IMG/VR virus record: IMGVR_UViG_3300020394_000115
Span: 1-52,758 of that record
DNA from: a virus
DNA: 52,758 nt
Direction: 5' to 3' (one strand)
A program made the position numbers and the translations under genes. The first letter of the stretch is position 1; each line of letters opens with the position of its first letter. Shown in pieces: positions 22,924 to 41,609 of this stretch. The notes below the pieces were generated by a model. It was not told where the DNA came from, did not search any database, and saw only the letters and a program-made list of their open reading frames with translations.

Positions 22924-23093
22924 CACTATACAAATTAAAACTTTATATAAAATTATACTGGTCAACATTTTTATCTTACTTTAAAAAGAAACCAAAAGAT
23001 AATGATGTTTACATTTACGAAAATGATATTGAAGAAGATGAATATCATCGTAAGTTAAGAGAAAACAAAATAGACATAAGTAAAGATGAATAA
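22920..23093 (+). CDS. Small acidic-tailed protein, 57 residues
   Basis: A short gene between gp46 and the carbamoyltransferase, coupled by ATGA at its start and TAATG at its end, which supports translation. The N-terminal 20 residues are hydrophobic and basic (a Leu/Tyr-rich possible amphipathic or membrane helix); the rest is charged and mainly acidic. No family recognised. Confidence 0.55.
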   Translation: MTLYKLKLYIKLYWSTFLSYFKKKPKDNDVYIYENDIEEDEYHRKLRENKIDISKDE

Positions 23094-24424
23094 TGATACA
23101 CGTAGGAATATCTGAAGGTTTTCATGATGCAGCTATAACTGTACTACATGGACAAGAAATAATATCAGCTAGACATAGTGAGAGATATACTAAAATTAAG
23201 AATGACCCAATTCTTGATTTAAATTTAATACCTGTTAAATATGACACATTAAATTTTTATGAAAAACCTTTCTTAAAAAATACTAGAAGATTATTTGCTG
23301 GTCAAAAATGGCAAAACCCTAGAAGAAAATATGACAATTATTTTGGTCATCATGAAACACATGCAGCTGCAGGTTATTACACTTCACCATTTAATGAATG
23401 TAACGTATTGGTTATAGATGCTATTGGTGAATGGAATACTGTATCCATATGGGAATGTAAAGATAATGAAATGAAAAAAATTAAGTCATGGAATTATCCT
23501 TATTCACTTGGTCTATTATATTCAGCAATCACTAAAAGATTAGGACTAAAACCAAATGAAGATGAATATATTACAATGGGTATGGCTGCGTTTGGAGAAC
23601 CTAGATATGATTTAGAATATTTACTAGAGGAAAACAATCACAAAGGTGTTGGTAGGATATTTCCACATGCACACCCACATGACTTAGCAGCTAGTGTACA
23701 AAATTTATATGAGACTAAGTTTTTGCAATTACTAAAATATTGTGAATATAGTAATCTAGTATTAGCTGGTGGTTGTGCTTTAAATTGTGTTGCTAACAGT
23801 AAGATACCAGACAGATTTAATGTTTGGATTTTACCAGCGCCAGGAGATGCAGGTTCATCTTTGGGTGCAGCTGCATTAGTTGAAAAGAAAAAATTAAAAT
23901 GGAAACATCCTTATCTTGGCTTAGCTGCAGGGCATGGTCAAAGTCATGTAAAGGAGATTGTAGATCATTTACTTAAACATGGAGTATGTGGAATAGTAAA
24001 TGGTAAAGAAGAGTTTGGGCCAAGAGCATTAGGAAATAGAAGTTTACTTGCAGACCCTAGATTAAATATTAAAGATACAGTAAATGAAATAAAACAAAGA
24101 CAAAAATTTAGACCGTTTGCACCAGCAATACTAGAAGAATATTTTGATAAGTATTTTGATGGTCGTAAAAATAGATATATGCAATTTGTATCTAAAGCAA
24201 AACATGATTTAAAATCAGTTACACATGTTGATGGTACTGCTAGAGTTCAATGTGTAGAGGAAGATAATATCAGTATATTAAGACCAATACTAGAAGAGTT
24301 TTATGATAGAACAGGTTGTCCTATGTTACTAAATACAAGTTTGAATATAAAAGGAAGACCTATGTGTAGCACTTGGGCAGATGCCCAAAGATTTGAGAAA
24401 AAATATAATGTCAAAGTATTCTAA
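23093..24424 (+). CDS. NodU/TobZ-type carbamoyltransferase
   Basis: The 443-residue protein begins HVGISEGFHDAAITVLHG, then has the HHETHAAAGYY block (His86, His87, His90) of the Kae1-like domain, LVIDAIGEW, VLAGGCALNCVAN and the C-terminal signature EFGPRALGNRSLLADPR followed by KFRPFAPAIL. These enzymes transfer carbamoyl groups from carbamoyl phosphate via an adenylate intermediate to sugars or other small molecules. It is shorter than typical NodU/TobZ (about 550-600). It is flanked by SGNH-like genes, which suggests a joint tailoring pathway. Confidence 0.9.
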   Translation: MIHVGISEGFHDAAITVLHGQEIISARHSERYTKIKNDPILDLNLIPVKYDTLNFYEKPFLKNTRRLFAGQKWQNPRRKYDNYFGHHETHAAAGYYTSPFNECNVLVIDAIGEWNTVSIWECKDNEMKKIKSWNYPYSLGLLYSAITKRLGLKPNEDEYITMGMAAFGEPRYDLEYLLEENNHKGVGRIFPHAHPHDLAASVQNLYETKFLQLLKYCEYSNLVLAGGCALNCVANSKIPDRFNVWILPAPGDAGSSLGAAALVEKKKLKWKHPYLGLAAGHGQSHVKEIVDHLLKHGVCGIVNGKEEFGPRALGNRSLLADPRLNIKDTVNEIKQRQKFRPFAPAILEEYFDKYFDGRKNRYMQFVSKAKHDLKSVTHVDGTARVQCVEEDNISILRPILEEFYDRTGCPMLLNTSLNIKGRPMCSTWADAQRFEKKYNVKVF

Positions 24425-25175
24425 AATAATTGCTGGTGGATGTTCTTTTACAGATAAGGATTTTCCTAAATTTGCCTCACCCAATCCATTAGATTATAAG
24501 ATGTGGCCAGAAGTCATAGGTGAAAAACTTGATTGTGAAGTTATTAATACTGGTAGATGTGGATTTGGTAATTATGCGATATATCACACTACTCTAAATG
24601 CAATAATGAAACATAAAGTAGACCATGTATTTGTTATGTGGTCAGATTGGACAAGGCAAGATTTTTTAATTGATAGTTTTGCAAGTTCAACAAGAATGGG
24701 TGGTAAAGCTGGTGGAGATTATGTATCACTACACCCATTTTATTGGGGAATAAAAGAAAGTGATGTCATAAAATGGTATAATGAATCTTTTACTAAAAAC
24801 TTCCCTCATAAACATATACATGGTAAAGAATTTACAGCATCGATGCCTAATATACAACAACTCATAGATACAAATATAAATTATATATTTTCAATGCAAG
24901 CAATATGTGAAAAATTAAATATTAAATATACTGCTTGTCAAGCAATGGAGAATGATAGATTTTTACCAAGTATTTTAATAAAACATCCATACTTAGAACA
25001 TATAAAAAATTTTTATGGATGGCCAATGGATAAAAAGCTAGGTGGATTTACCATGGTAGATTTACTTAAAAAAGAATACAAAAATGCTTATAAAGTTAGT
25101 GAAGAGGATGCTCATCCAAATGAAATAGGTCACAAATTTATAGGAAATAAAATAATGGAGTACATAAATGTCTAA
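24408..25175 (+). CDS. SGNH-like protein, paralogue 2
   Basis: The product has about 255 residues. The N-terminus IIAGGCSFTDKDFPKFASP has GCSF in place of the classical GDSF nucleophile motif. INTGRCGFGNYAIYH provides Gly and Asn blocks, and the end has SEEDAHPNEIGHKF with the Asp..His pair (DAHPN). The VMWSDWTRQDFL and GWPMDKKLGG blocks are shared with the neighbouring paralogue. Start chosen at the ATG at 24408, which aligns with the start of paralogue 3; an upstream ATG at 24381 lies in the previous gene. Likely an esterase or acyltransferase-like enzyme. Confidence 0.6.
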   Translation: MSKYSKIIAGGCSFTDKDFPKFASPNPLDYKMWPEVIGEKLDCEVINTGRCGFGNYAIYHTTLNAIMKHKVDHVFVMWSDWTRQDFLIDSFASSTRMGGKAGGDYVSLHPFYWGIKESDVIKWYNESFTKNFPHKHIHGKEFTASMPNIQQLIDTNINYIFSMQAICEKLNIKYTACQAMENDRFLPSILIKHPYLEHIKNFYGWPMDKKLGGFTMVDLLKKEYKNAYKVSEEDAHPNEIGHKFIGNKIMEYINV

Positions 25176-25887
25176 AATTATTATTACAGGTGGATGTTCT
25201 TTTGCAGATAAATTTATGCCCAAGAACGCAAAACCTAAACCACTTGATTATAAGATGTGGCCAGAAATCATTGGCGAGTTAAGTAAATGTGAAGTGATTA
25301 ACACAGGACACTCAGGTTTTGGTAATCATGCGATATATCACTCAGTACTCAACGAAATATGGAATAATATTGATGATGTACAACATGTTTATGTTATGTG
25401 GTCAGAATGGGCAAGACAAGACTTTTTAACAAAAAGTGGTTATAAATCAGTTGTTCCTAGATTAGAATTTGATGAATATAATAAAACACAAGCATTTTAT
25501 CAAAGAACATGGAGTCGTCCATTTCCTAGTATGCAACAACTTATAGACACAAATATGAATTACGTATATTCAATGCAAAGTATTTGTAAAAATTTAGGGA
25601 TTAAATATACTGCCGTTCAAGCAATGAAACCAATCCCTCAGCTTGTTGAGGGTGAAACCTTAGATACACCTTTTGCATACAATATAATAAAACATCCTCT
25701 AGTAGAAAGTATTGAAAATTTTATGGGGTGGCCAATGTTAGATCATCTGGGTGGATATAATATTGTAGATTTATTAAATTTATCTATGGGTTCTAGTTGG
25801 CGAATCAGTATAGAAGATGCACATCCAAATGAGAAAGCACAAAAGTTCATAGCATCCAAAATATACGAATATTCAGACAAATCCTAG
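25168..25887 (+). CDS. SGNH-like protein, paralogue 3
   Basis: The 239-residue protein is a close relative of the preceding one: IIITGGCSFADKFMP, then a LDYKMWPEIIGEL segment, INTGHSGFGNHAIYH, YVMWSEWARQDFL, a FMGWPMLDHLGGYNIVDLL segment and IEDAHPNEKAQKFI. The GCSF/GN/DAHPN arrangement fits an SGNH hydrolase with a Ser nucleophile and an Asp-His pair. The tandem arrangement, with an 8-base overlap, points to a local duplication. It ends the operon before the GC-rich gap. Confidence 0.6.
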   Translation: MSKIIITGGCSFADKFMPKNAKPKPLDYKMWPEIIGELSKCEVINTGHSGFGNHAIYHSVLNEIWNNIDDVQHVYVMWSEWARQDFLTKSGYKSVVPRLEFDEYNKTQAFYQRTWSRPFPSMQQLIDTNMNYVYSMQSICKNLGIKYTAVQAMKPIPQLVEGETLDTPFAYNIIKHPLVESIENFMGWPMLDHLGGYNIVDLLNLSMGSSWRISIEDAHPNEKAQKFIASKIYEYSDKS

Positions 25888-31866: not shown

Positions 31867-32802
31867 ATGGAAACATTTTTGTGGGTCGAAAAGTATCGAC
31901 CAAAGACAGTAGCAGATTGTATTCTACCTACTGAGTTAAAGAAAACATTTTCAGAGTTTGTAAAAGACAAACATATTCCCAATTTAATTTTATCTGGTTC
32001 TGCTGGAACTGGTAAGACTACTATTGCAAAAGCAATGGTGGAAGAGATTGGTAGTACATGGATGTTAATAAATGGTTCAGAGGAATCTGGTATTGACGTT
32101 CTACGTACTAAGATTAAAAACTTTGCATCAACTGTATCGTTAGAAGGTGGTAGGAAGTATATCATACTAGACGAGGCAGATTATCTTAATCCTCAATCAA
32201 CTCAGCCGGCCTTACGTGGATTTATGGAAGAGTTTCATAAGAACTGTGGTTTTATTCTTACTTGCAATTATAAAAATAGATTAATACCACCAATTCATTC
32301 TAGGTGTTCTAACATTGATTTTACTATTCGCAATGGTGAAAGAGTTAAACTTGCAGAGTCTTTTTTTAAAAGAGTACAAGATATTCTTGGTCAAGAAAAA
32401 ATTAAATCTGAACCTAAAGCAGTTGCAGAATTAATTAATAAATTTTTTCCCGATTGGCGAAGATGTTTAAATGAATTACAAAGGTATTCATCATCTGGTC
32501 AAATAGATGCAGGTATACTTGTTAATCTTTCAAGCGAAAATATAAAAGAACTTGTTGGTTTTATGAAGGCAAAAGAATTTACAAATGTTCGTAAATGGAT
32601 TGTTAACAATTTAGATAATGACCCATCAAGAATTTTTAGAACAATTTATAATTCTTTATATGACAATTTAGATCATAGCACAATACCACATGCTGTTGTA
32701 ATTATCGCAGATTATCAATATAAGTCAGCTTTTGTCGCAGATCAAGAGATTAATATGCTTGCTTGTATGACTGAATTAATGTCTCAGATAAAGTTTAAAT
32801 AG
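31867..32802 (+). CDS. gp44: Clamp loader large subunit gp44
   Basis: A 311-residue AAA+ ATPase (T4 gp44: 319). It begins FLWVEKYRPKTVADCILP; Walker A is GSAGTGKTT (44-52), Walker B is LDEAD (101-105) and the SRC motif is in HSRCSNIDF. Four copies with one gp62 open the gp45 clamp. In T4 gp62 follows directly; here three foreign-looking genes (2.8 kb) separate the subunits. Confidence 0.97.
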   Translation: METFLWVEKYRPKTVADCILPTELKKTFSEFVKDKHIPNLILSGSAGTGKTTIAKAMVEEIGSTWMLINGSEESGIDVLRTKIKNFASTVSLEGGRKYIILDEADYLNPQSTQPALRGFMEEFHKNCGFILTCNYKNRLIPPIHSRCSNIDFTIRNGERVKLAESFFKRVQDILGQEKIKSEPKAVAELINKFFPDWRRCLNELQRYSSSGQIDAGILVNLSSENIKELVGFMKAKEFTNVRKWIVNNLDNDPSRIFRTIYNSLYDNLDHSTIPHAVVIIADYQYKSAFVADQEINMLACMTELMSQIKFK

Positions 32803-32819
32803 GATAAATACATGTTACG

Positions 32820-33527
32820 ATGTATGAGAATAAAGTCGACTCCGACACAAGCGAATTCTTACAGACAGGTCTAGGAATGAAAAACGAATGGCATGTTGTA
32901 ACAGAATTTGAAAACAAGATAGCAGAATTCTTTGGTGCTCCATATGCGGTCGCCACAGATTGTTGTACAAATGCCCTTGAACTTAGCATAAGATTAGAAA
33001 AAATGAAAAAAGGTAGAGAGGTTAGACCAATAACTGTACCTTTCCACACTTATGTTTCAGTACCAAACATGTTAATTAAAAATAATTGGACATTCAATTG
33101 GGGTGATGTTCGTTGGCATGGATATCATTATTTAACAAAAGAAACAATTGATGCAGCTGTATATTGGAAAAGAAATGGTTATGAACCAGGTACAAAAATG
33201 TGTTTAAGTTTTTTTTATAGAAAACATTTAAGTACAGATAGAGGTGGAATGATACTTCTAGATAATAAAGAAGATGCTGATTTATTAAGGATAATGTGTT
33301 ATGATGGTAGGCAAAGATCAAACGTGCCATGGAATAAACAATACATAGATTTATTTGGTTATCATTATTATATGACACCACATAAAGCAAAAATAGGATT
33401 AAAAAATTTTGAAAAGGTGAAAGACAAAAAGCCAATAAGAAAAGATTGGGATTGGTACCCAGACATTCATAATTGGCCTGTCTATAAAAAATTTGGTGAT
33501 GAAACATTTAGTATTAGTACAAAGTAA
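32820..33527 (+). CDS. DegT/DnrJ/EryC1-like protein lacking the PLP core segment
   Basis: A 235-residue relative of sugar aminotransferases (usually about 370). It keeps the N-terminal GLGMKNEWHVVTEFENKIAE block, a CTNALELSIRL block in place of SGT.AL.L.L, the VPFHTYVSVPNMLI strand and the SFFYRKHLSTDRGGMIL segment that contains the Schiff-base Lys. The roughly 50-60 residues that normally carry the PLP-ring Asp (EDAAQ region) are missing and the C-terminal domain is cut short, so activity is doubtful. A weak late-like GATAAATA lies nine bases upstream. It starts an inserted cassette. Confidence 0.65.
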   Translation: MYENKVDSDTSEFLQTGLGMKNEWHVVTEFENKIAEFFGAPYAVATDCCTNALELSIRLEKMKKGREVRPITVPFHTYVSVPNMLIKNNWTFNWGDVRWHGYHYLTKETIDAAVYWKRNGYEPGTKMCLSFFYRKHLSTDRGGMILLDNKEDADLLRIMCYDGRQRSNVPWNKQYIDLFGYHYYMTPHKAKIGLKNFEKVKDKKPIRKDWDWYPDIHNWPVYKKFGDETFSISTK

Positions 33528-34593
33528 TCAAGGCGTAGGTCACGCAAATAGAGCAAAGGCTTTAGGTGAGTATCTAACAACCAGACTTATTATAACTAGA
33601 CCTTTTACAGGTAAATCAACCGATACTGAATTTTTTGGACACGATAAAGTCTATAACGATTTATATCAAGATTATAGAGAGTATGACCCAGATGTAATTA
33701 TTACAGAGGGATATCCTTTTGGTCGATATGGTTGGGACCCATTTTGGGCTGAACAATGGGGTCATAAATGGGAACATGGTGGCGTTTTAGATATATTAGA
33801 ACATGCAAAAGAAAATAAGAAAAAAATTTATTCATTAGATAGAGATATACCTTGGATTCAACCAAAGGAAATGTATTTCTATATTGATAGATTAAATGAA
33901 TATTATGATGGTGTGTTTTTTGCTGGCGACTATAATTTTTTAGACGCAACTGAGCAACTATATGAAACCCCCATGATAGATTGTGAAGTTTATAATACTG
34001 GTTATATTACATATCCTTATACCAAACCAAGTGTTGATAAAAGAGATGGTATATTAGTATCTGGTGGTGATTGGTATAAACTAACTCATAAGTATCAAAG
34101 ATTATTTCTTGAAGTAAAAGAAGCAATTCCTAGTTTAAAAATATCTTTTATTATTGGTGATAAAACACCAAAAGATATTTTAAAAATGGCAGAGAATAGA
34201 GATATTAATTTAATTAAAAGACCAAGTGTAAATGAATTTAGAGATTATTTGTCTGTACATAAAATGGCATTTACATCTTTAGGTTATATGACTTTTACTG
34301 ATTTAAATATTACAAAAACACCAGCGTTAGTTGTTCCAAATGAATATTCATCATCTGAATTATATGATGTAAATAATAATGTTATAGGAAACGAAGAAAC
34401 TTATAGAACATCTAGATATTCAGACGAAGGTGGTTGCCATTGGATACCACAAAAAGATTTAGATATAGATTTAATATTAGGAGGTATTGAAGAGACAATG
34501 AAAATTAAACAAGAGGATATACCAGATATCGATTTAGATGGTGGAGAATATATTAAACAATGTTTGATAGAGAAGAAAATAAAATATATTTAA
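33499..34593 (+). CDS. GT-B fold glycosyltransferase (MurG-like)
   Basis: The 364-residue protein has the N-terminal motif QGVGHANRAKALGEYL (residues 11-26), as in GT-B enzymes of the MurG/GT28 type (G.GH..R..AL). The middle has ILVSGGDWYKLTHKYQRLF, the start of the second Rossmann domain, and the C-terminal half has FTSLGYMTFTDLNITKTPAL, similar to the donor-binding loop. It should transfer a sugar from a nucleotide donor. Start ATG 33499 preferred; TTG and GTG codons precede it in frame. It overlaps the DegT-like gene by 29 bases. Confidence 0.7.
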   Translation: MKHLVLVQSNQGVGHANRAKALGEYLTTRLIITRPFTGKSTDTEFFGHDKVYNDLYQDYREYDPDVIITEGYPFGRYGWDPFWAEQWGHKWEHGGVLDILEHAKENKKKIYSLDRDIPWIQPKEMYFYIDRLNEYYDGVFFAGDYNFLDATEQLYETPMIDCEVYNTGYITYPYTKPSVDKRDGILVSGGDWYKLTHKYQRLFLEVKEAIPSLKISFIIGDKTPKDILKMAENRDINLIKRPSVNEFRDYLSVHKMAFTSLGYMTFTDLNITKTPALVVPNEYSSSELYDVNNNVIGNEETYRTSRYSDEGGCHWIPQKDLDIDLILGGIEETMKIKQEDIPDIDLDGGEYIKQCLIEKKIKYI

Positions 34594-35627
34594 AAAGTAT
34601 TCAAGGTGCGATAGATGGTGGACATATGCAAGCCTCGATAGATAACAAGTACATGTACCCTTGGCGTATAAACATATTTCCTGGTACGAGTTGTATGTTT
34701 TTTTGTTCTTTCTGTGGTAGAAATCATGGTTCTGTTGTTGATGATGCATATGAATCATATCTTTACTTTAAACAAGTAATAGAACAAGATAGTGGTAAAG
34801 ACCCTAAAGTTTTTGGTATAGGTGGTGGACTAGAACCACTGACAACACCTTACATAGGTGAAATATTTAAAAACTTACATGATGGTGGGTATAAATGTAG
34901 AATGTTAACAAATGCTTTTTTACTTAATAACAAGTATATTAAAAAACATGAATATATTAATTCGTTAGATCATATTAGAGTATCTTTGTATGGTATAGAT
35001 GAAGAAGAATATAAAAGTACAACAAAACATAATAAGGGTTGGCATGTTGTAAAAGAAAATTTAAAAAATTATAACAAGATTGAAAATAGAACTAAGTTAT
35101 ATTTAAATTATATACTATTACCAAGTAACTATAAAAACATATTAAAAGTAATTGATTATATTGATTACATAGGTGGATGTGATAATTTATCTTTACGTGA
35201 AGACTTTGCTTTTCATTATGAGATTGAAGAGAGAAAAACTTTGGCAGAGTATCTTTTAAAATTTGATACTGAAATAAAAAAGAGAGGTATAAGAGTTGAC
35301 TATGGTTATTCTTTATCTCAATTACTAAAAGGTTTGGAAACAAAACTATTAAGAGTAACTTCGGTAGATCAATTAACCAGAAGACAATCGCCACAAGTAA
35401 AGATTGCCCTTGACCCGAGAGGCGATATATATTATTATCAAGAAGCAGGTTTCATAGATAGACCTGGTTCAGATAGACATATTTTGGGTAATATAAAAAA
35501 TTCTTCTATTGAAGAAGAGCTAAAAAAAGAAGTTGAAATAGAACCTGATATAAATGATGTAAAATATATGGACGCATTTAATCAGACTGTTGAATTATAT
35601 AAATGGAGTAAGCGATGTATGAATTAA
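34560..35627 (+). CDS. Radical SAM enzyme
   Basis: The 355-residue protein has the [4Fe-4S] ligand motif CMFFCSFC (Cys45, Cys49, Cys52), followed by the GIGGGLEPLTTP block (SAM-binding GGE-like) and MLTNAFLL, LDHIRVSLYG and LYLNYILLPSN strands of the TIM barrel. No C-terminal auxiliary-cluster cysteines are evident. The substrate is unknown. Adjacent aminotransferase-like and glycosyltransferase genes suggest a deoxy- or amino-sugar reaction. It overlaps the upstream gene by 34 bases and gp62 by 13. Confidence 0.8.
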   Translation: MFDREENKIYLKSIQGAIDGGHMQASIDNKYMYPWRINIFPGTSCMFFCSFCGRNHGSVVDDAYESYLYFKQVIEQDSGKDPKVFGIGGGLEPLTTPYIGEIFKNLHDGGYKCRMLTNAFLLNNKYIKKHEYINSLDHIRVSLYGIDEEEYKSTTKHNKGWHVVKENLKNYNKIENRTKLYLNYILLPSNYKNILKVIDYIDYIGGCDNLSLREDFAFHYEIEERKTLAEYLLKFDTEIKKRGIRVDYGYSLSQLLKGLETKLLRVTSVDQLTRRQSPQVKIALDPRGDIYYYQEAGFIDRPGSDRHILGNIKNSSIEEELKKEVEIEPDINDVKYMDAFNQTVELYKWSKRCMN

Positions 35628-36010
35628 AAGATTATTTGAATTCTATTAATTATGGTAAAAATAATTTAATGGATAGTGGTGACCCAATGTGGGAAAAGAA
35701 ATACCCAGCATTTGTAGTAAACAAATGTCTCGCCCCTTTTGGTGATACGATACAGTTAGTTAATGAAATGAATCGTAATCATCATCTAGACAAAAAGTTA
35801 CAATATGACTTTTTACTAAATAGTTTAAGGACACGTAAAAGATTTGCACCTTGGATGAGGTCAAGTAAGTCCAAAAATTTAGAGTATGTAAAAGAGTATT
35901 ATGGTTATAATAATGAAAAAGGACAATCTGCTCTTAGCATATTAAACAATGAACAAATTAAAACAATAAAAGATAAATTGAATAAGGGTGGTAAACATGG
36001 AAAACGTTAA
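35615..36010 (+). CDS. gp62: Clamp loader small subunit gp62
   Basis: A 131-residue protein, shorter than T4 gp62 (187) as in marine relatives. Key segments are YPAFVVNKCLAPFGDTIQLV, NEMNRNHHLDKKLQYDFL and RTRKRFAPWMRSSKSKNLEY. It is the non-ATPase subunit that completes the clamp loader with gp44. It overlaps the radical SAM gene and the regA start, so despite the insertion the operon remains translationally linked. Confidence 0.9.
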   Translation: MYELKDYLNSINYGKNNLMDSGDPMWEKKYPAFVVNKCLAPFGDTIQLVNEMNRNHHLDKKLQYDFLLNSLRTRKRFAPWMRSSKSKNLEYVKEYYGYNNEKGQSALSILNNEQIKTIKDKLNKGGKHGKR

Positions 36011-36431
36011 GTGGTCGAGAGAAAACATGCTCGAAATTACACTAAAGCAACCTGATGATTTCCTTAAAGTGAGAGAAACACTTTCACGTATCGGAGTTGC
36101 TTCTAGAAAAGAAAAAAAATTATATCAATCTTGCCATATACTTCATAAACAAGGCAAGTATTACATAGTACATTTCAAAGAGTTATTTGCATTAGACGGC
36201 AAGGAAACAAACTTGTCTGAGAATGATATAGGTCGTAGAAATCGTATTGCATCATTACTTTCAGATTGGGGTTTGGTATCAGTAGTTGGTAATACTGAAC
36301 CAATTGCACCACTAAGCCAAATTAAGATTATAGCATTTAAAGAAAAAAACGATTGGATTTTAGAAACAAAATATAATATTGGAAAGTCTAAGGACTCTAG
36401 TGATGGCAATACAAAATCTACCACAACTTAA
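35997..36431 (+). CDS. regA: Translational repressor RegA
   Basis: The 144-residue protein resembles T4 RegA (122) with a longer Ser/Lys/Thr-rich tail. It has MLEITLKQPDDFLKVRETLS, SRIGVASRKEKKLYQSCHI, FKELFALDGK and GRRNRIASLLSDWGLV, the RegA core. RegA binds translation start regions of early mRNAs, including clamp-loader genes in T4. Start at the ATG 35997, preceded by AAGGGTGG; a GTG three codons earlier is possible. Confidence 0.93.
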   Translation: MENVKWSRENMLEITLKQPDDFLKVRETLSRIGVASRKEKKLYQSCHILHKQGKYYIVHFKELFALDGKETNLSENDIGRRNRIASLLSDWGLVSVVGNTEPIAPLSQIKIIAFKEKNDWILETKYNIGKSKDSSDGNTKSTTT

Positions 36432-37155
36432 AAAACAATTACGACTGATAGAGGAAAGTCATTTAATCTACAAACCTTTTGGTGAGTACGGTAGATATCG
36501 TTTTCCAAAAGAAGTTGTTAAAAGTTCATCTTTAGTTTATAGCATTGGGGTATCAAAAGATTGTGATATGGAAATCGCCATGGCAACTGACAACCCCGAT
36601 TTAAAATTTCATTGTTTTGATGGTTCACCACAATCAAAAAAATGGTGGGATACTGATAGTTGGCCATTTAAACCATCGATGACTTTTCATAATGTTTGTT
36701 ATGCACCTGATAATAATATCAATGTTCCATTTTATTACAATCCATTAAAAGAAATAGAAACTAGAATAGGATATGGTGATAGACCATATGGTAGAGAATA
36801 CAATTTAAAACCACACTTTATTAATGCTGTTGAAAATGTATATGAGGATAGTAAACAAAAACATGTTTTAGTTGAGACACAAAATTTTAGAACCATGATT
36901 AGTAAACATGGATTACCTGACATAATTAAAGCAGACACTTGGGGAATATGGTATGAGACTTGTAAAGAAATATTAGATTACAACATACCAATAAAATGTT
37001 TTCATATTAGAGCACATTTATTTTGTCCAACACCAGAAGAAAAACTATTTGATTTAATAGAAATAATAAGCGATTTTAAAGAAAAAGGATATGAAGCATA
37101 TCTAACACGACCAAGAGAAAACTTTGGATGTGACATGTTTTTTTTAAAAAAGTAA
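36403..37155 (+). CDS. FkbM-like methyltransferase
   Basis: The 250-residue protein has the motif I-like segment VYSIGVSKDCDMEIAMA (residues 45-61), a second strand reading FHCFDGSPQSKKWW, and IKADTWGIW near residue 180, the [DE].[DE]G-like block of FkbM O-methyltransferases. FkbM enzymes often methylate sugars. The ATG at 36403 has an AAGGA site eight bases upstream; an in-frame TTG at 36379 is less likely. It lies between regA and the polymerase promoter. Confidence 0.6.
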   Translation: MAIQNLPQLKKQLRLIEESHLIYKPFGEYGRYRFPKEVVKSSSLVYSIGVSKDCDMEIAMATDNPDLKFHCFDGSPQSKKWWDTDSWPFKPSMTFHNVCYAPDNNINVPFYYNPLKEIETRIGYGDRPYGREYNLKPHFINAVENVYEDSKQKHVLVETQNFRTMISKHGLPDIIKADTWGIWYETCKEILDYNIPIKCFHIRAHLFCPTPEEKLFDLIEIISDFKEKGYEAYLTRPRENFGCDMFFLKK

Positions 37156-37192: not shown

Positions 37193-39670
37193 ATGAGTAA
37201 GTTTTACACAAATGTTATACAATGGGGAAACAATCTTTTACTAAGAGAGATTGTCAATGGTGAACGTATTAATCGTAGGATTAAATATTCGCCTACTATG
37301 TTTTGCCCTGTCATGAGAGAAACAAAATACAAAACTCTTCAAGGCAAATATGTGATGCCTGTTAAACATGAGACTATCAAAGAAGCCAAGAATTGGATTC
37401 AACAATACGAAGATCAGCCTCACTTGGTATATGGTAATACCAACTTTCAATTTAATTATCTGTATGAACAATATCCTAACCTTGAGTGGAATATGGATGA
37501 AGTATTAATTATTACAATTGATATTGAGGTTGCTTGTGAGAATGGTTTTCCAAATGTAAAAGATGCAGCTGAGGAAATGTTATCTATCACAATTAAGAAC
37601 CAGCAGAATAAACAAATATTTGTTTGGGGTGTAGGTAAGTATCAAACAAGTAGAAAAGATGTTGTGTATATTGAATGTGATAATGAATATGAATTACTTA
37701 CAGAGTTTCTAAAGTTTTGGAAAGTAAATCAACCAGATGTTATTACTGGTTGGAATACAGAATTTTTTGATATACCTTATTTGTGTAATCGTATTAAAAG
37801 AATAATGGGTGAGGATACTTTAAAAGATTTATCACCATGGAGATCAGTATTATCTAAAACAATATATCAAATGGGAAGACAACATCAAATATACGAAATA
37901 CAAGGTGTTGCAGCTCTTGACTACTATGATCTATATAGAAAATTTACATACACCAATCAAGAGAGTTACAAACTAGATCATATTGCTAGTGTAGAACTTG
38001 GTATTAAGAAAGATGAAAATCCACATGATACGTTTAGAGATTGGTATACAAATGACTTTCAATCTTTTATAGATTACAATATCAAAGACGTTGAGATAGT
38101 TGACCAACTAGAAGACAAGATGAAACTAATTGAACTATGTTTAACAATGGCATATGAGGCAAAAGTAAATTATGTTGATGTTCTCGGTACAGTTCGTTAT
38201 TGGGATATGTTAATACACAACTACTTAATGGATAAAAAAATTGTTATACCACAAAAAACTGATAAAGAAAAATCTGACAAGTATGAAGGTGCATATGTTA
38301 AAGACCCACAGGTTGGCGAACACAAATGGGTTGTGTCTTTTGACTTGAATAGTTTGTATCCACATCTAATTATGCAATATAATATTTCACCAGAAACATT
38401 GAAGAGTGAAAGAACTGTACCTAATATGAATGTGGATAAGATGTTAAGTAAATCAGTTGATACATCTATATTAGAAAATACTACCATGACACCAAATGGT
38501 GCTTTGTTTAGAACTGATAAAAAAGGTTTTTTACCTGAGATGATGCAAACAATGTATGATGATAGAGTTAAGTATAAACGAGCAATGTTAGATGCTAAAC
38601 AAGAATATGAAAAAACTAAAAATGCAAAATTATTAAAAATGATATCTAAGTTCGATAATATTCAAATGGCAAGAAAGATTTCACTTAACTCAGCTTATGG
38701 TGCGATTGGTAACAAATGGTTTAGATATTACAATTTACCTATGGCAGAAGCAATAACCACTTCTGGTCAACTATCTATTCGTTGGATTGAACATAAGATA
38801 AATGAATACATGAATAATATAAATCAAACAAAAGATGTTGATTATGTTATTGCGTCTGATACAGACTCAGTTTATATTCGATTTGATGAACTAATAGAAA
38901 AATTTAATCCAAAAAACCCAGTTGACTTTCTTGATAAAATAGCTAAAGATAAAGTAGAACCATTTATTAATCAAGCGTATCAAGAACTTGCTGATTACAC
39001 ACACGCATACGATCAGAAAATGCAAATGAAACGTGAAGTGATTGCAGACAAAGGTATATGGACAGCAAAGAAAAGATATATTTTAAATGCACATGACGTT
39101 GAAGGTGTTCGTTATCAAGAACCTAAATTAAAAATTATGGGAATAGAAGCAGTTAAGTCTTCAACACCAGCACCTTGTCGTGAAAAAATTAAACAAGCAT
39201 TACGTATTATTATGGATGGTAACGAAAAAGAATTAAATATATTTATTCAAAATTTTAGAACTGAGTTTCTAACATTACCACCAGAGGATGTGGCATATCC
39301 TAGAAGTGTGAATGGTCTAGATAAGTGGACTGAATCACACAATCTATTTAAAAAGGGAGCACCAATACATGTCAAAGGTGCTATATTATATAATTATCTA
39401 GTTAAGAAAAATAAACTATCTCACAAATACCCATTTATACAAGAGGGTGATAAGATTAAATTTTTACATATGCAATTACCAAACATATATCAATCTTCTA
39501 GTATTTCATTTATTACTTCATTACCAAAAGAAATAAAGTTTGCTGTTGATTATGAAACACAATTTGAAAAGTCTTTTATTGAACCTCTACATTATATTAC
39601 TGAAAAAATTAAATGGAATGTAGATAGAACTTATGGTACTCAAGGTACTCTAGATGAATTTTTTGTATGA
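37193..39670 (+). CDS. gp43: Family B DNA polymerase gp43
   Basis: An 825-residue replicative polymerase (T4: 898). Exonuclease motifs are IDIE (Asp110, Glu112), TGWNTEFFDIPYL and YNIKDVEIVDQLED. Polymerase motifs are FDLNSLYPHLIMQYN, KISLNSAYGAIGN and ASDTDSVYI. It ends GTLDEFF, a clamp-binding type tail that matches T4 polymerase. It has its own TTGACA promoter and overlaps the next gene by ATGA. Confidence 0.98.
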   Translation: MSKFYTNVIQWGNNLLLREIVNGERINRRIKYSPTMFCPVMRETKYKTLQGKYVMPVKHETIKEAKNWIQQYEDQPHLVYGNTNFQFNYLYEQYPNLEWNMDEVLIITIDIEVACENGFPNVKDAAEEMLSITIKNQQNKQIFVWGVGKYQTSRKDVVYIECDNEYELLTEFLKFWKVNQPDVITGWNTEFFDIPYLCNRIKRIMGEDTLKDLSPWRSVLSKTIYQMGRQHQIYEIQGVAALDYYDLYRKFTYTNQESYKLDHIASVELGIKKDENPHDTFRDWYTNDFQSFIDYNIKDVEIVDQLEDKMKLIELCLTMAYEAKVNYVDVLGTVRYWDMLIHNYLMDKKIVIPQKTDKEKSDKYEGAYVKDPQVGEHKWVVSFDLNSLYPHLIMQYNISPETLKSERTVPNMNVDKMLSKSVDTSILENTTMTPNGALFRTDKKGFLPEMMQTMYDDRVKYKRAMLDAKQEYEKTKNAKLLKMISKFDNIQMARKISLNSAYGAIGNKWFRYYNLPMAEAITTSGQLSIRWIEHKINEYMNNINQTKDVDYVIASDTDSVYIRFDELIEKFNPKNPVDFLDKIAKDKVEPFINQAYQELADYTHAYDQKMQMKREVIADKGIWTAKKRYILNAHDVEGVRYQEPKLKIMGIEAVKSSTPAPCREKIKQALRIIMDGNEKELNIFIQNFRTEFLTLPPEDVAYPRSVNGLDKWTESHNLFKKGAPIHVKGAILYNYLVKKNKLSHKYPFIQEGDKIKFLHMQLPNIYQSSSISFITSLPKEIKFAVDYETQFEKSFIEPLHYITEKIKWNVDRTYGTQGTLDEFFV

Positions 39671-40473
39671 TAGATAAACTATTAGTTGAAAATATAGAAC
39701 AAACAACACCAGATCAAAACGTGGCAGTATTATTGTCTGGTGGGGTTGATAGTATATCAGTTGCATTGGCAGCTCATAGACTAGGAAAAACTATAACAGC
39801 ATATTCTTTTTGCCTTGACAACGAGCCCTCTTATGATTATAATAAGGCTAAAGAGATTGCAAAGAATCACAATTGGGCATTTGTAGGAACTGTAATAGAC
39901 ACTACAAAACTTGAACAAGACTTTTACAAGTTGGTAAGTTTAGGATGCAAAAAGAAAACTCATTATGAATGTGTGTATCCTTTTTTACATGTGTACCCAA
40001 AGATTGCAGAGACTTATGTACTCTCTGGTTGGGCAGCAGATGGTTATTATGGAGTAAGTAAAAAAGCAAACATCCATTATAAACATACTAAAGAAAAGTT
40101 TGATGAGTTTAGAGATCAATACTTTTTACCAGAAAATGCAGCTGGATATAAAATGCATAAAAAAGTTTCGGATATGTATAATAAAAAATTTATTACACCA
40201 TATCTAAGAATGAATGTGAAAGATTATTTTTATAGTATGGATTGGTATCAATTAAATCAACCTTATCAAAAACATCACGTAAGAACTGCTTTTAATCTTG
40301 ACAAAGACGTTAAGAAACATTTAAACTTACAATTAGATTCAAAAATAAATGTATTGTTTGAAAGACTGCTAAATAATAAAAAGATAAACTATAAAGGAAG
40401 ATCAAGAGTGATGGACATGGTTAGAGATTGGCCTAAACCTGAAGGTGCAACACTAAATCAATTTATGATATGA
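39667..40473 (+). CDS. PP-loop ATPase, asparagine synthetase-like
   Basis: The 268-residue protein has the PP-loop SGGVDS (24-29) in VAVLLSGGVDSISVAL and a later YVLSGWAADGYYG that resembles the S.GGDE.F.G block of the asparagine synthetase synthase domain. The glutaminase domain is absent, so it would need free ammonia or a different nucleophile. It may adenylate and amidate a small molecule or modify a base. Coupled to gp43 and to the C5 methylase by ATGA overlaps. Confidence 0.7.
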   Translation: MIDKLLVENIEQTTPDQNVAVLLSGGVDSISVALAAHRLGKTITAYSFCLDNEPSYDYNKAKEIAKNHNWAFVGTVIDTTKLEQDFYKLVSLGCKKKTHYECVYPFLHVYPKIAETYVLSGWAADGYYGVSKKANIHYKHTKEKFDEFRDQYFLPENAAGYKMHKKVSDMYNKKFITPYLRMNVKDYFYSMDWYQLNQPYQKHHVRTAFNLDKDVKKHLNLQLDSKINVLFERLLNNKKINYKGRSRVMDMVRDWPKPEGATLNQFMI

Positions 40474-41609
40474 AATACAAACCTTATTTAATGAAAGATG
40501 TACATGCTGGAGAAGCTCTGAATAAGTTTAGAGTTATATCTACTTTCGCTGGTGGTGGAGGTTCATCTACAGGTTACAGACTTGCTGGTGGTAAGATACT
40601 TGCAATTAATGAGTTTGTTGAAGAGGCAAGAAATACTTACAGAGACAATTATCCTAACACACCAATTCTTGATGGTGATATAAAAGAACTTACAGGTAAA
40701 GAATTTTTAGAAGTAACAAAATTAAAAGAAGGTGAACTAGAATTATTAGATGGCAGTCCACCTTGTTCAGCATTTAGTATGTGTGGTACTCTTGCAAGAG
40801 AGGGAACTGTACATAGTGATGGGTTTGGTAAAACTAAATCTTATTCAGATGGTAAGATAGTTACAAACATCGAAGACTTATTTTTTGAGTTTCTAAGAGT
40901 TGCTGAAGTTATTAGACCAAAAACTATTATTGCAGAAAATGTTGAGGGTCTAACAGTTGGAGAAGCAAAACAATATTTTAATAAAATTCAAAATACATTT
41001 GAAGACATTGGATATCAAGTAGTTGCAAAAGTACACGATTGTTCTCAGTTTGGTGTTCCACAAAGAAGACGAAGAGTTTTCTTCATGGCAGTACGTGATG
41101 ATATCATGGATGAAGTTGGTTTAAACTTTATGACATTATCATCTTTATTTCCTGAGCCAAATAAAACAATTACTACTTTACAAGGTGCCTTTGATGGTTT
41201 AGAGTATGATAAAGATGAAGTTGATATGTTAACTACAAAATGGAAAGAGACAGCATACTATAAACAAACATGTGTTTTGATGCCAAGAAACCCAGATAAA
41301 GTTATTACTGGTACAGACTATCATCCTAAAGGATGGCACTTTAATTTAAAGATTGCTTCAGAGTTTCACCCTAGTCCTACTATTACAGCGATGGGTGCAA
41401 CAGAAAAAACTGCTGGAGTTTGTCATTGGAATGATGATAGAAAATTTACACTTGGCGAATTAAAAAGAGTTACTTCATTACCAGATGATTTTGTACTTAC
41501 AGGTAAGTGGGCACAAAAAAGTGAAAGATGTGGTCGTATGGTACCTAGTCTTATGATGAAAGCTCTTGCTGAATCAATGTATAACAAGGTGATAAAAAAT
41601 GCCAGATAA
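40470..41609 (+). CDS. DNA cytosine-C5 methyltransferase
   Basis: A 379-residue enzyme with the C5-methylase motifs in order: FAGGGGSSTG (27-36, SAM), GSPPCSAFS (95-103, catalytic Cys99), IIAENVEGL (ENV 156-158), QRRRRVFFMA (motif VIII) and a C-terminal block with RVTSLPDDFVLTG. The target recognition region is short. It would put m5C into phage DNA, complementing the MT-A70 adenine methylase at 19732. Confidence 0.93.
   Translation: MKYKPYLMKDVHAGEALNKFRVISTFAGGGGSSTGYRLAGGKILAINEFVEEARNTYRDNYPNTPILDGDIKELTGKEFLEVTKLKEGELELLDGSPPCSAFSMCGTLAREGTVHSDGFGKTKSYSDGKIVTNIEDLFFEFLRVAEVIRPKTIIAENVEGLTVGEAKQYFNKIQNTFEDIGYQVVAKVHDCSQFGVPQRRRRVFFMAVRDDIMDEVGLNFMTLSSLFPEPNKTITTLQGAFDGLEYDKDEVDMLTTKWKETAYYKQTCVLMPRNPDKVITGTDYHPKGWHFNLKIASEFHPSPTITAMGATEKTAGVCHWNDDRKFTLGELKRVTSLPDDFVLTGKWAQKSERCGRMVPSLMMKALAESMYNKVIKNAR

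What the first reader, a model, noticed from the sequence alone, without database searches (positions are those of the whole stretch)
32820..35627. DegT-like, glycosyltransferase and radical SAM cassette inside the clamp-loader operon
gp44 and gp62 encode one complex and are adjacent in T4, but here 2.8 kb is inserted between them with overlapping starts kept. Aminotransferase, radical SAM and glycosyltransferase together recall deoxyamino-sugar pathways such as desosamine biosynthesis. Expression would follow replication genes, so the target could be DNA, host surface or a nucleotide sugar.
Basis: partly seen in the sequence, partly recalled or inferred. Interest (0 to 1): 0.75.

Follow-up and report, generated by a model that had tools for sequence, protein, structure and literature searches.

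The report
Phage deoxyamino-sugar cassette in clamp-loader operon
A marine T4-like virus carries, wedged between two DNA-replication genes, three short genes that look able to build an unusual amino sugar (with a radical enzyme related to one from antibiotic pathways) and attach it to something, most probably the surface sugars of the infected cell, less probably the viral DNA.

Summary
In detail: 2.8 kb between intact gp44 and gp62 encode a shortened DegT aminotransferase (32820-33527), a GT-B glycosyltransferase (33499-34593) and a radical SAM enzyme (34560-35627), same strand, ends overlapping. The radical SAM protein is a relative of DesII, the desosamine ammonia-lyase (PDB 8HZV, E=5e-49), with every reported cluster-, SAM- and catalysis-related residue kept except a conservative Y324F. 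Independent contigs show the same order. In 70 IMG/VR relatives the gp44-gp62 gap is a cargo slot: 25 empty, 26 other small genes, 6 DegT+GT, 13 DegT+GT+DesII-like. The DesII-like gene is never there without the other two, is under purifying selection, and the cassette moves as a unit. In two lineages a GFO/IDH/MocA sugar dehydrogenase replaces it beside a near-identical DegT, suggesting both supply a 3-keto sugar for amination. Best reading: synthesis and transfer of a deoxyamino sugar. The target is not settled: host surface glycan is favoured (pelagimyophage precedent; DesII homologues in SAR11 polysaccharide loci); DNA is the live rival (the slot carries Dam, Mom-like and oxygenase genes in relatives; nearby C5-methylase). 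The clamp-loader location itself is ordinary; the DesII-type enzyme in phages appears unreported.

The parts
31867..32802 (+). gp44-type clamp-loader large subunit (upstream flank of the slot)
   Evidence: PHROG 168 E=2e-121, PF00004/PF21328
32820..33527 (+). Mini-DegT sugar aminotransferase, 235 aa; predicted PLP lysine K135 and PLP-N1 aspartate D111; C-terminal domain of full-length DegT enzymes missing
   Evidence: PF01041 1.2e-21; profile hits to perosamine synthase and other sugar aminotransferases; AlphaFold model pLDDT 79.5, all top 50 Foldseek hits are DegT-family enzymes, TM 0.53-0.65 by query length, 0.33-0.42 by target; D111 and K135 invariant in 12-13 homologues
33499..34593 (+). 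GT-B-fold glycosyltransferase (GT1/GT28-like); invariant N-terminal G-x-G-H loop; ORF could also start at TTG 33493
   Evidence: No Pfam/PHROG/NCBIfam hit; AlphaFold pLDDT 77.3, Foldseek MurG 7e-11 and GT1 enzymes, also GT-B 2-epimerases; G14, G16, H17 invariant in 11 homologues
34560..35627 (+). DesII-type radical SAM sugar ammonia-lyase, 355 aa; C45/C49/C52 cluster, GGLE 89-92, R140/S142/Y144, D215, E295, D338; lacks the ~115-residue N-terminal domain of DesII
   Evidence: TIGR04426 9.9e-62; PDB 8hzv/8hzy 5e-49; residue mapping and tree
35615..36010 (+). gp62-type clamp-loader small subunit (downstream flank of the slot)
   Evidence: PHROG 225 E=1e-42, PF16790

Best explanation
A mobile sugar-tailoring cassette sitting in a known cargo slot of the replication operon of an uncultured pelagimyophage/methylophage-like T4 relative. 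Proposed working: the DesII-type radical SAM enzyme uses a 5'-deoxyadenosyl radical to take the amine off a host-supplied 4-amino-4,6-dideoxy (or similar) NDP-sugar, leaving a 3-keto-4-deoxy sugar; the mini-DegT then puts an amine on C3, giving a 3-amino-3,4,6-trideoxyhexose nucleotide (like N-demethyl desosamine); the GT-B enzyme transfers it to an acceptor, most likely a host envelope glycan, so that competing phages cannot adsorb. Shown: gene content, DesII kinship with catalytic residues kept, selection, co-occurrence, exchange as a unit. Inferred: the order of steps (DesII before DegT) from the swap with a sugar dehydrogenase; the donor nucleotide; the supply of precursor by the host; the acceptor and the benefit. 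Rough odds: sugar-modifying cassette 0.9; DesII-before-DegT order 0.5; surface-glycan target 0.5.
For: DesII kinship: PDB phmmer 5e-49, TIGR04426 1e-61; all Fe-S cysteines, GGLE, R/S/Y ribose motif, D323, E408 and the essential D456 equivalents kept (residues from PMC11434129). Co-occurrence: 13 of 13 contigs with the DesII-like gene at this site and both flanks also have DegT and GT; a DesII-like/DegT pair without an adjacent GT recurs at another genomic place in L099. Ketone-module swap: in L009 and L021 a GFO/IDH/MocA enzyme (L009 copy: best hit UDP-GlcNAc 3-dehydrogenase, 2e-15, below cut-off) stands in place of DesII, while DegT is 86% and 89% identical to that of the matching DesII-bearing contig. 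Unit transfer: between L007 and L087 cassette dS is 0.14-0.25 against 0.51-0.75 in gp44/gp62. Surface target: full-length DesII homologues of SAR11 and Marine Group I lie among polysaccharide-type genes; nearest phage DegTs lie in glycan clusters; LPS-type genes in clusters of two or three, and O-chain modification against coinfection, were already proposed for pelagimyophages (PMC7029224).
Against: No activity is shown. The TIGR04426 score of 209 is below the 450-bit equivalog cut-off, so the substrate may differ from DesII's. DegT lacks its C-terminal domain and could be altered in function. NDP-sugar precursor enzymes are not on the record, which is only 52.8 kb. Four contigs have DegT+GT with neither DesII nor dehydrogenase. 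Three contigs have a DesII-like gene without a nearby DegT (L100, L101, L118). Position in a replication operon, in a slot that holds DNA-modifying cargo in relatives, fits DNA as well. The host is unknown.
Confidence: 0.5

Rival explanations
1. DNA hypermodification: the cassette makes a deoxyamino sugar that the GT-B enzyme adds to a hydroxymethylated base of the phage DNA during replication, protecting it from nucleases.
For: Cassette is in the clamp-loader/polymerase operon; a C5-cytosine methylase lies 4.8 kb downstream (40470-41609) and is 91-97% identical in the nearer relatives, including those whose gp43 is only about 75-78% identical. The same gp44-gp62 slot holds Dam (S-RIM4), a DNA methyltransferase plus 2OG-Fe(II) oxygenase (P-RSM6) and a Mom-annotated gene (S-SCSM2R). 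Melnitz, the nearest isolate, has a TET/JBP gene overlapping its C5-methylase gene. RB69 has a candidate sugar-donor module for arabinosyl-hmC between gp43 and uvsX (PMC6024577).
Against: No TET/JBP (PF12851) or thymidylate synthase/hydroxymethylase family (PF00303) on this record or on the cassette-bearing contigs searched, all fragments. The GT's best fold hits are MurG/GT1 and 2-epimerases, with no DNA glucosyltransferase in the PDB top 50. In the slot, 2OG oxygenase and cassette are alternatives, not partners. SAR11 rarely has restriction systems (PMC7029224).
Confidence: 0.25
2. DesI-type order: DegT makes the 4-amino sugar, DesII removes the amine, so the pair is a 4-deoxygenation module and the GT transfers a 4-deoxy (keto or later reduced) sugar. 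This concerns the order of steps and is independent of the target.
For: It is the order of the characterised desosamine pathway (a 4-amino sugar is the DesII substrate; PMC11434129) and needs only a common host 4-keto-6-deoxy NDP-sugar; a DesII-like/DegT pair exists without a GT in L099.
Against: Does not explain why nearly the same DegT works with a sugar dehydrogenase in L009 and L021, or with GT alone in the 1.75-kb form; leaves a reactive 3-keto sugar unless another enzyme acts.
Confidence: 0.25
3. Virion glycosylation or a small diffusible glycoside rather than envelope or DNA.
For: Glycan clusters in large phages (S-SCSM2R, LR756502) mix DegT with many GTs and their target is also unknown.
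Against: The cassette is in the replication operon, not with structural genes, and no acceptor protein or natural-product scaffold gene is adjacent.
Confidence: 0.1
4. Decayed or functionless cargo: the shortened DegT and DesII are remnants.
For: DegT lacks its C-terminal domain and DesII its N-terminal domain.
Against: The short forms are shared by all the phage homologues, catalytic residues are invariant, reading frames intact and dN/dS low across divergent lineages.
Confidence: 0.05

Closest known systems
DesII (TIGR04426), TDP-4-amino-4,6-dideoxy-D-glucose ammonia-lyase of desosamine biosynthesis (PDB 8HZV/8HZY)
   Same: Radical SAM core and C-terminal part align almost end to end, 33% identity, all cluster, SAM-binding and catalytic residues kept apart from Y324F
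   Different: No N-terminal six-helix domain; below the equivalog cut-off; all phage forms are one separate clade (100/100 support); context is a phage replication operon
Full-length DesII homologues of SAR11, Marine Group I and Luteitalea (L095-L098)
   Same: Same family (TIGR04426 328-350 bits for the three scored), same catalytic residues where aligned; in SAR11 and Marine Group I set among glycan-type genes
   Different: 470-505 aa with the N-terminal part in SAR11 and MGI; 31-37% identity to the window protein; cellular
DegT/DnrJ/EryC1/StrS sugar aminotransferases (perosamine synthase, ArnB, AtS13)
   Same: PLP fold and catalytic Lys/Asp
   Different: Phage forms are 195-236 aa instead of about 370-390; C-terminal domain absent
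Pelagimyophage LPS-related gene clusters (PMC7029224)
   Same: Small groups of deoxy-sugar and glycosyltransferase genes in T4-like phages of streamlined marine bacteria, proposed to alter the host O-chain
   Different: That paper's main text mentions no aminotransferase and no clamp loader, and GT8 is its main GT family
RB69 arabinosyl-hmC module (PMC6024577)
   Same: T4-like phage with candidate sugar-donor genes next to replication genes
   Different: DNA target shown by chemistry; arabinose, not an amino sugar; hmC-containing DNA; the text mentions no aminotransferase

Membership tests
DesII (TIGR04426 equivalog) | Score above the curated cut-off (450 bits) | tested here: not met
   209 bits over residues 20-344; full-length SAR11/MGI homologues also fall short at 328-350
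DesII (TIGR04426 equivalog) | CX3CX2C cluster motif and the GGLE, R/S/Y and beta-6 SAM motifs | tested here: met
   C45/C49/C52, GGLE 89-92, R140/S142/Y144, D215 (Y324 is F)
DesII (TIGR04426 equivalog) | Catalytic E408 and essential D456 | tested here: met
   E295 and D338; D338 invariant in all homologues aligned, E295 is G in some phage forms (roles from PMC11434129)
DesII (TIGR04426 equivalog) | N-terminal six-helix domain | tested here: not met
   Alignment starts at DesII residue 117
DesII (TIGR04426 equivalog) | Deamination of TDP-4-amino-4,6-dideoxyglucose | not testable with these tools
   Needs an anaerobic enzyme assay
DegT/DnrJ/EryC1/StrS (PF01041) | Family score above gathering and PLP Lys/Asp | tested here: met
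   77.9 vs 19.8 bits; D111 and K135 invariant
DegT/DnrJ/EryC1/StrS (PF01041) | Full two-domain fold | tested here: not met
   Model covers only part of each target, TMt 0.33-0.42 over 219-262 alignment columns
GT-B glycosyltransferase (GT1/GT28 type) | Two Rossmann-like domains matching MurG/GT1 | tested here: met
   Foldseek E down to 7e-11, probability 1.00, TM about 0.5-0.6; donor and acceptor unknown
Desosamine-type pathway | Two aminotransferases, DesII, N,N-dimethyltransferase, and RmlA/RmlB supply | tested here: not met
   One DegT and one DesII-like; no PF16363 or PF00483 on the record
Phage DNA base glycosylation | Enzyme making a hydroxymethylated base (TET/JBP or dCMP hydroxymethylase) | tested here: inconclusive
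   Absent from the 52.8-kb record, but the genome is incomplete
Phage DNA base glycosylation | Sugar-bearing nucleosides in virion DNA | not testable with these tools
   Needs nucleoside mass spectrometry

The most novel reading that the evidence does not exclude
The cassette puts a radical-SAM-derived 3-amino-3,4,6-trideoxy sugar onto bases of the phage genome: a DNA hypermodification of a kind not yet described, in ocean phages, with interchangeable modules (DesII-type lyase or sugar dehydrogenase) giving different sugars in sister phages.
Probability: 0.15. Interest if true: 0.88.

Novelty: new variant of a known kind. Interest (0 to 1): 0.6.

Why it matters
DesII is known as an enzyme of antibiotic sugar biosynthesis. 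Finding a compact, deep phage branch of it beside a minimal aminotransferase and a glycosyltransferase suggests that marine viruses make their own rare deoxyamino sugars. The natural swaps (DesII-like for a sugar dehydrogenase, GT for GT, the DegT kept) make a ready set for testing what the sugar is and what it is attached to, and so whether such phages alter host surfaces or their own DNA.

Tried and rejected
Chance ORFs or assembly chimera: rejected (two further contigs at 98% identity, low dN/dS). Recent host acquisition: not supported; GC and codon use match the phage core and phage DesII proteins form one deep clade. Database searches for close rSAM or GT relatives in cultured phages: none. 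Single-sequence scan of bacterial genomes with the rSAM found none; only the alignment query reached four cellular homologues. UDP-GlcNAc 2-epimerase reading of the middle gene (also GT-B hits) judged less likely because of the invariant N-terminal G-x-G-H loop and the MurG-like C-terminal pattern, which is my reading of the alignment. The radical SAM beside the S-SCSM2R mini-DegT is not DesII-like. RmlA/RmlB/TET/thymidylate synthase family searches gave nothing in the record. Promoter scan: 58 sites against 46.8 expected, uninformative. No Rfam match or tRNA in the window. No paper on DesII-type enzymes in phages was found.

Full report
OBSERVATION. The window (a 52,758-base virus record) carries the order gp45, gp44, [three genes], gp62, RegA, one unassigned gene, gp43. 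The bracketed genes fill 32820-35627 exactly as reported. DegT/GT, GT/rSAM and rSAM/gp62 overlap by 29, 34 and 13 nt; gp44 and DegT are 17 nt apart. L002 and L003, from two other metagenomes, repeat the arrangement at 98% identity, and substitutions are strongly synonymous.

WHAT THE GENES ARE. The radical SAM protein is the surprise. Its best NCBIfam model is DesII at 1e-61, and its only significant PDB relatives are the two DesII structures at about 5e-49. Mapped on the DesII structure paper (PMC11434129), the Fe-S cysteines, the SAM motifs, the proposed base E408 and the essential D456 are all present (Y324 is Phe); D456 is invariant in every homologue aligned, phage and cellular. It lacks the N-terminal helical domain. 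The DegT protein keeps the PLP lysine and aspartate but is 235 aa; its model matches sugar aminotransferases over part of their length. The middle protein has no sequence match, but its model is GT-B, nearest to MurG, GT-B 2-epimerases and GT1 enzymes.

WHERE ELSE IT OCCURS. The nearest cultured phages are Melnitz (OM43 host) by gp43 and gp44, then by gp44 the SAR11 phage Mosig. Of 70 IMG/VR contigs with both gp44 and gp62, 25 have the two genes 2 nt apart, 26 have other short cargo (a 2OG-Fe(II) oxygenase in those read at 521-551 nt), 6 have DegT+GT and 13 have DegT+GT+DesII-like. These contigs are related and are not independent counts. Cultured marine T4-like phages also use the slot: oxygenases (Mosig, HTVC008M, P-RSM6), DNA methyltransferases (P-RSM6, S-RIM4), a Mom-annotated gene (S-SCSM2R). 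So the location is ordinary and the cargo is what matters.

COUPLING. At this slot the DesII-like gene never appears without DegT and GT. A DesII-like/DegT pair without a GT stands elsewhere in L099, and three contigs have a DesII-like gene without a nearby DegT. Between L007 and L087 the cassette is much more similar at synonymous sites than its flanks, so it is exchanged as a unit. Within the cassette, parts also swap: in L009 and L021 a GFO/IDH/MocA oxidoreductase (weak best match of the L009 copy: UDP-GlcNAc 3-dehydrogenase) replaces DesII, beside DegTs 86% and 89% identical to those of DesII-bearing sisters; GT types are shuffled across both.

HOW IT LIKELY WORKS. A C3 ketone is the known product of DesII and the expected product of the dehydrogenase, so the simplest common plan is that either one feeds a C3 ketone to the same DegT, whose amino sugar the GT then transfers. 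With DesII this gives a 3-amino-3,4,6-trideoxyhexose. This is an inference; the classical order, amination before DesII, is a serious rival. The precursor must come from the host or from unseen phage genes, since no RmlA/RmlB-type families are on the record.

TARGET. For the surface: DesII homologues of SAR11 and Marine Group I lie among polysaccharide-type genes; phage DegT relatives lie in glycan clusters; pelagimyophage deoxy-sugar/GT clusters were proposed to modify the host O-chain (PMC7029224); the window also has a carbamoyltransferase next to two paralogous genes with SGNH-like motifs (the SGNH reading is by eye). For DNA: the operon, the DNA-modifying cargo of the same slot in relatives, the conserved C5-methylase, the TET/JBP gene of Melnitz and the RB69 precedent (PMC6024577). 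Against DNA: no enzyme that would make a hydroxylated base was found on this or the cassette-bearing sister records, all incomplete. I put surface at about 0.5, DNA at 0.25.

NOVELTY. Phage glycan cassettes are a known kind. The DesII-type enzyme, its compact form, and the interchangeable ketone modules appear new; the literature searches found nothing on DesII in phages, within an open-access library only.

Noticed in passing
L094:5208-6194 (Melnitz MZ577097.1): A protein annotated as hypothetical is a TET/JBP-type 2OG oxygenase (PF12851 3.6e-11) whose gene overlaps that of the HhaI-like C5-methylase; the pair suggests 5mC oxidation in this OM43 phage.
   Followed up: partly
window 40470-41609: C5-cytosine methylase 91-97% identical in the nearer IMG/VR relatives, even those whose gp43 is only about 75-78% identical; about 62-64% in two more distant contigs.
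   Followed up: no
window 23093-25887: NodU/Nol-like carbamoyltransferase followed by two paralogous genes with GCSF and DAHPNE motifs that look SGNH-like by eye; no family hit above cut-off.
   Followed up: partly
window 36379-37155: 258-aa gene between RegA and gp43, variable among relatives; no Pfam, PHROG, NCBIfam or PDB match; by eye FkbM-methyltransferase-like.
   Followed up: partly
window 39667-40473: AsnB/QueC/LarE-like ATP pyrophosphatase domain protein between gp43 and the C5-methylase, itself variable among relatives.
   Followed up: no
L095, L096, L097, L098: DesII homologues in SAR11 single-cell genomes, an acidobacterial MAG and a Marine Group I thaumarchaeote; in SAR11 and MGI they lie in polysaccharide-type loci, so the family is not confined to macrolide producers.
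   Followed up: partly
L004:11998-13382 (S-SCSM2R): Mini-DegT beside a different, non-DesII radical SAM enzyme, several GTs and an inosamine amidinotransferase in a cyanophage.
   Followed up: partly
L052:3095-3691: A mini-DegT at another genomic place, in a contig whose gp44-gp62 slot is empty.
   Followed up: no
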